Shown here in pieces: positions 5,486 through 33,240 of a DNA stretch of 64,000 bases. This DNA is from Rouxiella sp. WC2420. GTDB lineage: Bacteria; Pseudomonadota; Gammaproteobacteria; Enterobacterales; Enterobacteriaceae. Position 1 is the stretch's first letter; each line of letters begins with the position of its first letter. The DNA is taken from contig NZ_CP165628.1 in NCBI RefSeq assembly GCF_041200025.1, positions 1,054,001 through 1,118,000 of the forward strand, in the 5' to 3' direction. A program made the translations under genes and the position numbers. Below the pieces are notes generated by a model that worked only from the letters and a program-made list of their open reading frames with translations, did not search any database and was not told the origin of the DNA.

Positions 5486-6856
5486 TTACCCTACCGTGAC
5501 TTTGCCATTCACTTCGGCCTGAGCCTGAGCCGCCTGAGTGGAAATGTGCTGCTGCTCTTCGCGATATTTCTGTTTGTCCCATACGCGGAAGAACGGGTAG
5601 TAAATTACCATCGAGATAGCCAGATTCACCACCTGAATAACCGTGCCGGAAATATGCCCGCCGGTTGCCAGATAGCCGCTGATGAAAATCGGCGTAGTAA
5701 ACGGTAAAGCAATGCCCACTGGCGGCGTGACCAAGCCGGTCGCCATCGCGGTGTAGGTGACGATCACCAGCACCACCGGCGTAAGGATAAACGGCAGGAA
5801 GAAATACGGGTTCATTACCAGCGGAATACCAAACACCATCGGTTCACTGATATTAAACAGGCAGCCCGGTGCAGCGATGCGCCCCAGCTGTTTCATCTGC
5901 GCACTGCGACTGCGGATCAGCATAAAAATCACTAATCCCAACAGTGCCCCGGTTCCTCCCGGCGCTATCCATAAATCATAAAATTGCTGGGTAATAATGT
6001 GCGGAATCGGCTGGTTATTTTGAAACGCAGTCAGGTTCTCGGACATATTCGACAGCCAAATCGGCTGGATAAATACCAGCACGATGGCATCTCCGTGCAA
6101 CCCCAGCGTCCATAGCAGCCCGATGAGAACTACCGAGAAAATCATGCCCGGCAGAGTGCCGCCAATGTGATGCATCGGAATGCCGATAATCGTGGCGATC
6201 ATGGTATTAATATCGCCGAACGGCGTGGCCTCGACAATCAGCCTCAGCGCCAGCACTACCGCTAATACGCAAAAGCCCGGCACCAGACTGAGAAACGATT
6301 TTGCCACTGCAGGCGGAACACCCTCGGGCATAGTGATCACCAGGTCTCGATTGTGTACAAAACGGTAGATCTCGGTGGAAAGCAGCGCAATGAGAATTGC
6401 CACAAACAGGCCCTGACTGCCGATAAAATTCATGGGCAGTACGCCTTTCACCATCATGGCTTCTGCGCCAACCACTGGAGCAAATAAAGTATGCTGTGGA
6501 ATGGTCAGCAGAAAGGCCACCAGGGATACAGCGCCTGTACTTAATGGGTCCAGCCCGCGATACTTTTCTGCCAGCCGATAGGCAATACCGAAGCTGGAGA
6601 TAATTGCCATAATATCGTAGGTGGCTTTAACAGGATAAAGCAGCTTATCGCGCCATGCTGCCCCGAATAAATCCCCCATGAAATTGGCATAGCTAGGGAA
6701 GGGGAGATAGGCAAAAATAAGAAAGAACGATCCAATCAGCATAAACGGCATGTTAAGAATAATACCATCGCGAACGGATAATATATGTTTCTGTCCGGCT
6801 ATTTTTAATGCAGCCGGTAATACGTAACGCTCTATTAGTGTATTTATATTAGCCAT
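5486..6856 (-). CDS. PTS EIIC component, lactose/cellobiose (beta-glucoside) family
   Basis: A 456-residue membrane transporter of the Lac family of PTS enzyme IIC (ChbC/CelB type), which moves and helps phosphorylate cellobiose-like sugars. It starts with the family N-terminus (LPAALKIAGQKHILSVRDGIILNMP split over the first 30 residues) and contains the NISEPMVFGIPLVMNP segment that forms part of the sugar site. About ten hydrophobic segments are visible. It is the last gene of an EIIB-EIIA-GH4-EIIC unit on the minus strand, 143 bp behind the GH4 gene. It was not given a chb symbol because the gene order and regulator differ from E. coli chbBCARFG. Confidence 0.92.
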   Translation of the reverse strand: MANINTLIERYVLPAALKIAGQKHILSVRDGIILNMPFMLIGSFFLIFAYLPFPSYANFMGDLFGAAWRDKLLYPVKATYDIMAIISSFGIAYRLAEKYRGLDPLSTGAVSLVAFLLTIPQHTLFAPVVGAEAMMVKGVLPMNFIGSQGLFVAILIALLSTEIYRFVHNRDLVITMPEGVPPAVAKSFLSLVPGFCVLAVVLALRLIVEATPFGDINTMIATIIGIPMHHIGGTLPGMIFSVVLIGLLWTLGLHGDAIVLVFIQPIWLSNMSENLTAFQNNQPIPHIITQQFYDLWIAPGGTGALLGLVIFMLIRSRSAQMKQLGRIAAPGCLFNISEPMVFGIPLVMNPYFFLPFILTPVVLVIVTYTAMATGLVTPPVGIALPFTTPIFISGYLATGGHISGTVIQVVNLAISMVIYYPFFRVWDKQKYREEQQHISTQAAQAQAEVNGKVTVG

Positions 6857-31611: not shown

Positions 31612-32082
31612 ATGATGAATAACGATGTCTTGCGCAGCGTACGCTATATGCTCGACTTGAGCGAAGGCCGGCTGATTGAGATTCTGGCGTCTACCGGCAC
31701 AATTATTACTCCGGCGGTGATGTCGCGTTATCTGAAAAAAGAAGACGAAGCGGACTATATGGTTTGCCCGGATGAAGTGATGGCGAACTTCCTCAATGGT
31801 CTGATTTTCTTCAAACGTGGTAAAGACGATCGCTTCCCGGCTCCAGAAGTTGAAAAGCGTGTAACCAACAATGTGATGTTGAAAAAGTTGCGCGTGGCTT
31901 TTGAACTGAAAACTGAAGATTTGCAGGGCGTGTTGGCTGCTGCTGATTTTAAAGTTTCTGAAGGTGAGTTGAGCGCGTTCTTCCGTAAAGAAGGCCACAA
32001 GAACTATCGCCCGTGCGGTGATCAGGTTTTGCGCTACTTCTTGAAAGGTCTTACTATGCGCGTTCGCCCGAAAAAAGGCTGA
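31612..32082 (+). CDS. yehS: YehS-type DUF1456 protein
   Basis: A 156-residue protein with two DUF1456 repeats (about 4-70 and 84-150; NDVLRSVRYMLDLSE and NNVMLKKLRVAFELK begin them), collinear with E. coli YehS. The function is unknown. The last 48 bp of the gene are duplicated 613 bp downstream as part of a tandem repeat; the duplicate is an isolated 3' fragment. E. coli has yehS in a different chromosomal location. Confidence 0.9.
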   Translation: MMNNDVLRSVRYMLDLSEGRLIEILASTGTIITPAVMSRYLKKEDEADYMVCPDEVMANFLNGLIFFKRGKDDRFPAPEVEKRVTNNVMLKKLRVAFELKTEDLQGVLAAADFKVSEGELSAFFRKEGHKNYRPCGDQVLRYFLKGLTMRVRPKKG

Positions 32083-32133
32083 TTATTTCCTGACTTTTAT
32101 AAAAAAGTTCTGAAAATCGCCCTGTGCACCGCC

Positions 32134-32165
32134 CACAAAAAAACCGCCTATGGCGGTTTTTTTGT
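32134..32165 (+). terminator. Intrinsic terminator after yehS (also at 32748-32780 in copy 2)
   Basis: CACAAAAAAACCGCC pairs with GGCGGTTTTTTTGTG around a 3-nt loop, with the T-run inside the descending arm. The A-tract arm makes it usable in both directions. The second copy keeps the stem exactly. Confidence 0.88.
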
Positions 32166-32361
32166 GCTGGTCCGGTAAGCGGCCTTTCCAGCGGTATCAT
32201 ATTCATGTATTTCATTGTTTCGCAAGCACGCCTAAGCAAGACGATTTTGGTCTTAATAATATCGACTGTCAAGCGATCCCTAAGCCAAATTGGTGTAGGA
32301 TGGCCGCTGGCCTTTTCGCCACCTTAAGCAAGTGGGCACCGGGTTTAGAAAAGGATATCTA

Positions 32362-32535
32362 ATGGCCGTAACCGCAGGCACGCCTAAGTGCTTGTTTCAC
32401 GGTTTTATCTCCGGTGGTGGTTCCGTGAAGCGGTCTGAGCAAGGACCGCGCAATAAAAAGATACCTTTGTATCTTCATCATTGTTTCGGCTGTGGCAGTG
32501 AGCCTCGGAAAGGGGAGCTGGAATATTTCCAATAA
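32362..32535 (+). CDS. Conserved small ORF in the duplicated spacer, copy 1 (57 aa)
   Basis: The ORF begins at ATG 32362 with AAGGA about 8 nt upstream and encodes a basic 57-residue peptide starting MAVTAGTPKCLFHGFISG. It has three Cys (positions 10, 47, 49; HHCFGCGSEP near the end), suggesting metal binding or a disulfide. The second copy differs by one residue (Lys to Glu near position 37). An intrinsic terminator follows. I do not recognise the family. Equally, the region may be a structured small RNA, since several short inverted repeats lie in it (GCACGCCTAAGTGC, CGGTC..GACCG). Confidence 0.45.
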   Translation: MAVTAGTPKCLFHGFISGGGSVKRSEQGPRNKKIPLYLHHCFGCGSEPRKGELEYFQ

Positions 32536-32576
32536 CTCTCTCAACGTGATCATTACTACAACGAGCAAGTAAGCTA

Positions 32577-32603
32577 ATAGCCACCTGTGAGGGTGGCTAT
32601 TTT
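32577..32603. terminator. Terminator closing each spacer unit (also 33181-33207)
   Basis: ATAGCCACC pairs with GGTGGCTAT around TGTGAG, followed by TTT. In copy 2 it lies 8 bp beyond the fadE stop and would also serve fadE on the minus strand (A-rich/T-rich flanks). Confidence 0.75.
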
Positions 32604-32646
32604 CTATCTGTTAAGCGGCTTCGGTAGGTTTAGGCGTTTAAATGAC

Positions 32647-33240
32647 CTACTTCTTGAAAGGTCTTACTATGCGCGTTCGCCCGAAAAAAGGCTGATTATT
32701 TCCTGACTTTTATGAAAAAAGTTCTGAAAATCGCCCTGTGCACCGCCCACAAAAAAACCGCCAATGGCGGTTTTTTTGTGCTGGTCCGGTAAGCGGCCTT
32801 TCCAGCGGGCTTGAACTAACTTAACGCAAGCACAGATTAGTGATTTAATTTTGACCTTAATATTATTCTCTGTCAAGCGATCCCTAAGCCAAATTGGTGT
32901 AGGATGGCCGCTGGCCTTTTCGCCACCTTAAGCAAGTGGGCACCGGGTTTAGAAAAGGATATCTAATGGCCGTAACCGCAGGCACGCCTAAGTGCTTGTT
33001 TCACGGTTTTATCTCCGGTGGTGGTTCCGTGAAGCGGTCTGAGCAAGGACCGCGCAATGAAAAGATACCTTTGTATCTTCATCATTGTTTCGGCTGTGGC
33101 AGTGAGCCTCGGAAAGGGGAGCTGGAATATTTCCAATAACTCTCTCAACGTGATCATTACCACAACGAGCAAGTAAGCTAATAGCCACCTGTGAGGGTGG
33201 CTATTTTCCATCTATTAAGCGGCTTCGGTATGTTTAGGCG
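32647..33240 (+). repeat. Tandem duplication of the yehS-fadE spacer, copy 2
   Basis: The second copy begins with the last 48 bp of yehS, still in frame (an ATG at 32642 would give a 17-residue remnant), and ends in the genuine 3' end of fadE. Block A differs from copy 1 by one inserted base near 32713 and the terminator loop (AAT for TAT). Block B differs at only a handful of positions in 370 bp. Confidence 0.92.
32966..33139 (+). CDS. Conserved small ORF in the duplicated spacer, copy 2 (57 aa)
   Basis: Same reading frame, start and ribosome binding site as copy 1, with one predicted residue changed. Its upstream 62-bp block has diverged from copy 1 and contains TTTTGACC and TAATATTAT, possible -35/-10 elements, so the two copies may be expressed differently. 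Confidence 0.45.
   Translation: MAVTAGTPKCLFHGFISGGGSVKRSEQGPRNEKIPLYLHHCFGCGSEPRKGELEYFQ

What the first reader, a model, noticed from the sequence alone, without database searches (positions are those of the whole stretch)
32034..33240. The entire yehS-fadE spacer is tandemly duplicated, carrying a conserved small gene or RNA
Seen directly: two units of about 600 bp with breakpoints inside the 3' ends of yehS and fadE. Block A (~160 bp) and block B (370 bp) are nearly identical, while the 62-72 bp between them, where a promoter would lie, has diverged. A recent duplication should look uniform, so either conversion or selection keeps the blocks alike and lets the upstream segment change. Block B carries a 57-codon ORF with ribosome binding site, three Cys and one residue difference, and its own terminator, so the unit looks like a mobile or dosage-selected small gene.
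Basis: partly seen in the sequence, partly recalled or inferred. Interest (0 to 1): 0.8.

Follow-up and report, generated by a model that had tools for sequence, protein, structure and literature searches.

The report
Duplicated toxin-antitoxin gene with swapped antitoxin
A stretch of this bacterium's chromosome carries two side-by-side copies of a known self-poison and RNA-antidote gene pair (timP/timR), in which one copy seems to have kept the matching antidote and the other the working toxin; some E. coli strains, K-12 laboratory strains among them, show a similar but milder layout.

Summary
The duplication is real. Each unit is a timP/timR type I toxin-antitoxin locus, not a new small gene: both copies match Rfam ryfA (the timP mRNA) at 170.7 and 177.3 bits (threshold 80). 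The 57-codon ORF is a non-conserved overlapping frame; the coding frame is TimP (39 codons). The diverged 62-72 bp hold the promoter-like site and pairing segment of the predicted antitoxin TimR on the minus strand. TimR1 (copy 1) is complementary to both timP copies. TimR2 (copy 2) is not, but fits the timP of a same-species strain assembled with one unit (Serratia sp. M24T3). Copy 1's TimP start codon reads ATA; copy 2's is ATG. So copy 1 would supply the antitoxin and copy 2 the toxin: a cross-wired pair, made by recombination that left a timR of one specificity beside a timP of another. In 6 of 22 E. coli genomes examined (K-12 layout; not a random sample) the better-matching TimR is likewise upstream and the adjacent one weaker, though not clearly unmatched. 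Tandem ryfA pairs with separate specificities are published for Shigella; the searches made showed no report of cross-wiring. Transcription and function are inferred.

The parts
32034..32646 (.). Unit 1 (yehS 3' end, timR1, timP1, fadE 3' scrap)
32647..33240 (.). Unit 2 (yehS 3' scrap, timR2, timP2, fadE 3' end)
32134..32238 (-). timR1 antitoxin sRNA (predicted; ends approximate): terminator-like hairpin 32134-32166, pairing segment 32221-32238
   Evidence: complementary to timP +68..+85, duplex -36.0 kcal/mol; hairpin read by eye, not listed by the scan
32244..32272 (-). timR1 promoter-like TTGACA-17-CAAAAT
   Evidence: consensus match only
32306..32604 (+). timP1 mRNA (ryfA RNA)
   Evidence: RF00126, 170.7 bits
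32373..32390 (+). TimR target site in timP1 5'UTR
32453..32572 (+). TimP1 reading frame; start codon reads ATA, so probably not translated
32748..32842 (-). timR2 antitoxin sRNA (predicted; ends approximate): hairpin 32748-32780, pairing segment 32825-32842 not complementary to the timP2 core
32848..32876 (-). timR2 promoter-like TTGACA-17-CAAAAT
   Evidence: consensus match only
32763..32869 (.). Mosaic tract: copy 2 equals G004 (Serratia sp. M24T3) and differs from copy 1 at all 37 variable alignment columns (10 of them gap columns); outer bounds 32749-32895
32910..33208 (+). timP2 mRNA (ryfA RNA)
   Evidence: RF00126, 177.3 bits
32977..32994 (+). TimR target site in timP2, identical to the timP1 site
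33057..33176 (+). TimP2, intact 39-aa toxin frame
   Evidence: NCBIfam NF040796 E 0.031, below its cut-off; no Pfam family

Best explanation
The unit is the type I toxin-antitoxin locus timP/timR (timP mRNA = ryfA RNA) of a Rouxiella strain, duplicated in tandem and then cross-wired. Two pairing specificities, a (core CACGCCTAAG) and b (core CACAGATTAG), are seen in the two genomes of this species. Copy 1 carries TimR-a and a timP-a whose TimP frame lacks an ATG. Copy 2 carries an intact timP-a beside TimR-b. TimR-a from copy 1 is expected to act in trans on the timP2 mRNA by pairing with its 5'UTR, as TimR does in Salmonella, while TimR-b is left without a matching timP in this genome. Shown by sequence: duplication, RNA family, mosaic tract, complementarity, start-codon difference. 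Inferred: transcription of both TimRs, loss of TimP1 translation, silencing of TimP2 by TimR1, and that TimR2 is ineffective.
For: Rfam ryfA at both copies. The uSL1-SL3 pseudoknot described for Salmonella has 7 pairs in both copies; 50 of 52 loci have at least 6 pairs in those columns, two of the 50 (L019, L043) out of register. TimP frame conserved. Over 52 loci adjacent TimR/timP pairs have median score 16.75 against 8.5 for other pairs; 46 of 52 adjacent pairs score 13 or more against 179 of 2652 other pairs; window copy 2 does not. TimR2's best partner is the G004 timP (19.5, own timP 10.0); timP2's best partner is TimR1 (16.5). Duplex energies: TimR1 x timP2 -36.0, TimR2 x timP2 -19.8, TimR2 x G004 timP -33.5, third-locus TimR x timP2 -17.1 kcal/mol. 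Copy 2 equals G004 at all 37 variable columns of 32763-32869, and equals copy 1 against G004 at the two columns 32742 and 32748 and at 18 of 18 from 32896 to 33008. The genome search found only 3 ryfA loci, none with a b-type timP.
Against: No RNA or protein data. TimR2 keeps a 10-bp run with timP2 (-19.8; 6 of 500 shuffles as low), so partial control is not excluded. AUA starts translation in rare cases (recalled), and a sequencing error at that base cannot be excluded from one assembly. Only one strain shows this arrangement. G004, the single-unit strain, is a draft of 110 contigs, in which a tandem repeat could have been collapsed. Downstream of 33008 the pattern is mixed: 3 columns copy 1 = copy 2, 3 copy 1 = G004, 2 copy 2 = G004. 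In G003 (R. silvae) both units of a tandem pair have intact TimP, but the first unit's timP is matched only at 14.0 by either TimR there, against 21.5 for the second unit's timP, so a strong match is not always kept. The K-12 parallel is mild: its adjacent TimR scores 13.5, above the line of 13 used here, and -30.7 kcal/mol. The NCBIfam TimP model is below its cut-off and Pfam finds nothing.
Confidence: 0.72

Rival explanations
1. A neutral tandem duplication in decay: the start-codon loss and the mismatch are chance damage of a redundant locus and have no consequence.
For: No ryfA match in 2 of 6 genomes of the genus, one of which keeps a TimR-terminator-like remnant beside yehS (my reading); a TimP frame that appears shifted at the lpdA-side locus of G005 (L009).
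Against: timR2 is not decayed but identical to the allele of another strain over the tract; its promoter-like hexamers are intact; TimP2 and both 5'UTR pseudoknots are intact.
Confidence: 0.3
2. TimR2 still controls timP2 through its 10-bp run, so both units are ordinary self-contained pairs.
For: 10 contiguous pairs, -19.8 kcal/mol.
Against: Score 10.0, rank 22 of 52 timPs. For zor/orz 15 continuous or 17 interrupted pairs were reported as sufficient (PMC11264685, passages). In S. dysenteriae, RyfB1 lowered RyfA1 but not RyfA2, which differ most in a 5-nt variable region (PMC5333039, passages).
Confidence: 0.18
3. A new 57-codon cysteine-containing protein is the conserved product.
For: Frame open in both copies.
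Against: No ATG in 3 of 3 relatives, stop in the closest, 1 synonymous to 7 non-synonymous codons.
Confidence: 0.01

Closest known systems
timP/timR type I toxin-antitoxin locus (ryfA; Salmonella; PMC7667032, parts 1-4 of 7 read; PMC11228461, parts 1-2 of 5 read, passages of the rest)
   Same: timP RNA family, small frame with hydrophobic N-terminal part, divergent antisense gene upstream, pairing in the 5'UTR, SL1-SL3 pseudoknot
   Different: Two units; one toxin frame lacks ATG; the antitoxin beside the intact toxin does not match it
ryfA1/ryfA2 with ryfB1/ryfB2 of Shigella dysenteriae (PMC5333039, part 1 of 7 and passages)
   Same: Tandem units, ryfA copies 95% identical, largest difference in a 5-nt variable region; RyfB1 lowered RyfA1 and not RyfA2
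   Different: There the reported pairing is within a unit (RyfB1 with RyfA1); in the window the intact timP matches the other unit's TimR
E. coli K-12-layout sseA-sseB locus (L063, L072, L073, L081-L083)
   Same: Upstream unit with the better-matching TimR and no complete timP (a timP stub, as read in L072); downstream timP beside a weaker-matching TimR
   Different: Upstream timP is truncated rather than start-less; the mismatch is milder (13.5 and -30.7 against 18.5 and -38.1 kcal/mol)
zor/orz (PMC11264685, passages)
   Same: Tandem type I pairs, variable pairing region, antitoxin-only loci
   Different: Different toxin and RNA; no swapped pairing mentioned in the passages seen

Membership tests
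timP/timR type I TA | ryfA/timP RNA family RF00126 above gathering score | tested here: met
   170.7 and 177.3 vs 80 bits
timP/timR type I TA | Small ORF with hydrophobic, signal-like N-terminal part | tested here: inconclusive
   copy 2 reads MKRYLCIFIIVSAVAVSLGKG...; judged by eye, no signal predictor was run
timP/timR type I TA | NCBIfam TimP model NF040796 above its cut-off | tested here: not met
   14.5 bits vs 45, E 0.031. This is a curated score line, not a published defining trait; the RNA family and the gene arrangement carry the assignment
timP/timR type I TA | Divergent sRNA upstream whose 5' part pairs with the timP 5'UTR | tested here: met
   copy 1 yes (16.5); copy 2 not with its own timP (10.0) but with the G004 timP (19.5); the sRNA itself is predicted
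timP/timR type I TA | uSL1-SL3 pseudoknot of about 7 bp | tested here: met
   CACCGGG x TCCGGTG in both copies
timP/timR type I TA | Toxic on overexpression, silenced by TimR | not testable with these tools
   needs bench work
Rfam IS128 (RF00125) | Match above gathering score in the window | tested here: not met
   17.8 bits vs 80; met by E. coli L072 and L074

The most novel reading that the evidence does not exclude
Tandem duplication followed by exchange of timR or timP tracts is a regular route by which timPR changes its RNA recognition code: a duplicated locus can hold two codes, recombination re-pairs them, and losing one toxin locks the cell into a toxin guarded by the neighbour's antitoxin. 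Collapse of the array through block A would leave the intact toxin without its matching antitoxin, so the array protects itself. Rouxiella and E. coli K-12 would have reached such a state independently.
Probability: 0.3. Interest if true: 0.75.

Novelty: new variant of a known kind. Interest (0 to 1): 0.55.

Why it matters
How a toxin and its antisense antidote can both change their matching sequence without a harmful mismatch is a general question for toxin-antitoxin systems. Here is a natural candidate intermediate with the other allele still visible in a strain of the same species, and a comparable if milder layout in E. coli K-12, where it can be tested at once. If it holds, the sRNA next to timP in K-12-layout strains may not be its main regulator, which bears on RyfA/TimR deletion studies.

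Tried and rejected
The 57-codon ORF was tested and rejected. A first whole-region duplex scan was uninformative: it mixed in terminators, and some minus-strand loci were not turned; an ungapped complementarity scan replaced it. A free search for pseudoknot runs did not discriminate (51 of 52 loci, often at other places) and was replaced by one confined to the expected columns. The terminator scan listed only the timP1 hairpin (1 found, 1.8 expected in shuffles) and neither timR hairpin. A search for other sites with the TimR-b core, 13 bases with up to 1 mismatch, gave 7 places, one of them timR2 itself, against 4 for the reversed pattern; the one equal to the G004 target lies in an ORF with helix-turn-helix domains; the other five were not looked at. 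Phage records gave no TimP match at E 0.1.

Rows dropped and used: the 52 loci are the 48 rows plus the four rows of G004 and G005; 14 of them were fetched. L001 and L002 (the window's copies again) and L039 and L040 (records of G003 and G004) were left out. Six of 52 lack an adjacent score of 13: window copy 2, L018, L019, L034, L043, L050; L050 has no TimP-like frame. L018 was not followed further. The E. coli sample of 22 was picked from rows listed, some because they showed two places or 99% identity, so its proportions say nothing about frequency.

Papers: PMC7667032 parts 1-4 of 7 and passages; PMC11228461 parts 1-2 of 5 and passages; PMC5333039 part 1 of 7 and passages; PMC13188913, PMC11264685 and PMC8205139 passages only; others search listings only. 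Figures and supplements were not seen, so I cannot say which K-12 TimR the published alignments used.

Full report
What is there. The window lies in a genome of the genus Rouxiella: G003 of the same genus holds the contig of Rouxiella silvae 213, and the same-species genome G004 holds the contig of Serratia sp. M24T3 (contig lengths 104,971 and 63,011 agree; the window's own species name was not given). The yehS-fadE spacer is duplicated in tandem as described. Both units match Rfam RF00126, ryfA. [quoted passage not shown] PMC11228461, parts 1-2 of 5).

Anatomy. timP2 (32910-33208) has an intact 39-codon TimP frame; timP1 (32306-32604) has the same frame with ATA where copy 2 has ATG. In Salmonella an ATG to AAG change abolished TimP synthesis and toxicity (PMC7667032), so TimP1 is probably not made; I saw no test of AUA. 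Both 5'UTRs keep the pseudoknot. On the minus strand each unit has a promoter-like TTGACA-17-CAAAAT (3 promoter-like sites against a mean of 1.3, sd 1.3, in shuffles) and a hairpin with T runs in block A, read by eye as the timR terminator and not listed by the scan. The diverged 62-72 bp are the promoter-proximal half of this predicted timR.

The mismatch. An ungapped scan that allows G-U pairs gives an adjacent upstream segment scoring 13 or more in 46 of 52 timP loci, against 179 of 2652 non-adjacent pairs. Adjacent pairs have median 16.75, other pairs 8.5; 38 of 52 TimR regions rank their own timP first, ties counted. Window copy 1 scores 16.5. Window copy 2 scores 10.0, rank 22, while its TimR scores 19.5 with the timP of G004; timP2 is best matched by TimR1 (16.5). 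Duplex energies agree: TimR1 x timP2 -36.0 (0 of 500 shuffles as low), TimR2 x timP2 -19.8 (6 of 500), TimR2 x G004 timP -33.5, third-locus TimR x timP2 -17.1 kcal/mol.

How it arose. The window and G004 are 98.2 and 98.4% identical over two alignments of about 6.9 and 6.7 kb that run into the units. Copy 2 equals G004 and differs from copy 1 at all 37 variable columns between 32763 and 32869 (10 are gap columns). It equals copy 1 against G004 at the two columns just upstream (32742, 32748) and at all 18 from 32896 to 33008; beyond that the pattern is mixed (3, 3 and 2 columns), with copy 2 equal to G004 at the start codon. So copy 2 is a mosaic: a b-type timR inside an a-type unit, or equally an a-type timP that replaced a b-type one beside its timR. 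The direction cannot be told. G004 is a draft in 110 contigs, so a collapsed repeat there is possible.

Genus survey. Six genomes of the genus were held. By ryfA matches, the yehS-side locus has two units in the window and one in G003, G004 and G005; G001 and G002 have no ryfA match in the genome at E 0.001. G002 seems to keep the TimR terminator region beside yehS (my reading). A third, diverged timP lies elsewhere in the window's genome (69.3 bits, below threshold), beside a pyridine nucleotide-disulphide oxidoreductase that I read as lpdA (the name is recalled). In G003 that locus is itself a tandem pair with two intact TimP frames; either TimR scores 21.5 with the second timP but 14.0 with the first, whose core equals that of G005. 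That is a second mosaic-like array, and also a case against the rule that an intact toxin always keeps a strong match. In the family search 39 of 295 genomes had a match at E 1e-6.

E. coli. DNA like K-12 timP is found in 5,375 of 5,426 genomes at 6,667 places, so second copies or pieces are common. In RP437 the order is sseA, timR with core TGCTTCAC, a timP stub, timR with core CGCGTCTC, timP with core TGTTTCAC, sseB. The upstream TimR, 481 nt from the target site, scores 18.5 and -38.1 kcal/mol with timP; the adjacent one 13.5 and -30.7. The adjacent one is thus weaker, not clearly unmatched. Of 22 genomes examined (23 timP genes, picked from listings), 6 genes have this layout, 16 have an adjacent TimR scoring 17.0 to 18.5, and 1 (L080) has none, apparently after a deletion. 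EcE.ESBL.COL has two complete units, each matched. In 1,062 of 5,426 genomes the best place is at least 99% identical to the K-12 timR-timP stretch (coverage is not given for that band, and some K-12 records fall in the 95-99% band because two pieces were joined); 1,835 hold at least 80% of a 150-bp query from the stub and the spacer after it. Rfam's IS128 family matches that stub and spacer in RP437, and the spacer between the two units in EcE.ESBL.COL.

Known and new. Tandem ryfA1/ryfA2 with a 5-nt variable region, and RyfB1 acting on RyfA1 and not RyfA2, are published for S. dysenteriae (PMC5333039); tandem zor/orz with variable pairing, and antitoxin-only loci, likewise (PMC11264685). The listings of searches and the passages seen showed no paper on swapped timPR units; the library is open-access only and figures and supplements were not seen. 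I call it a new variant of a known kind.

Consequence, inferred. A crossover in block A would delete timR1 and leave timP2 beside TimR2, a toxin without its full antidote; a crossover in block B would leave TimR1 with one timP. If TimR2 is ineffective, the array is partly self-locking.

Noticed in passing
L003 1501-1798 (G000:C1:4542772-4543069): Third, diverged timPR-like locus in the same genome beside an lpdA-like gene; 69.3 bits, below Rfam's threshold, but with a TimP-like frame and an adjacent TimR score of 17.0.
   Followed up: partly
L008, L010 (G003:C42, R. silvae 213): A separate tandem duplication of the lpdA-side timPR locus; both TimRs fit the second timP (21.5) better than the first (14.0).
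   Followed up: partly
L009 (G005 lpdA-side locus): TimP frame appears shifted next to a T run; decay or sequencing error.
   Followed up: no
L064 1355-1657 (Serratia sp. JSRIV006 plasmid), L093 901-1020 (E. coli 49.9-kb plasmid): timPR-like loci with adjacent TimR scores of 27.0 and 17.5 on plasmids; 59 plasmid records have a TimP-like match at E 0.1.
   Followed up: partly
L072 957-1165: The Rfam 'IS128' sRNA of E. coli coincides with the timP stub of the first unit and the spacer after it.
   Followed up: partly
L080 793-969: E. coli strain 400660: the timR segment and the timP target seem fused, as if the stretch between the two repeats had been deleted.
   Followed up: no
window 32637-32647: The duplication junction carries fadE sequence from about 116 bp further in, pointing to a second deletion step.
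   Followed up: partly
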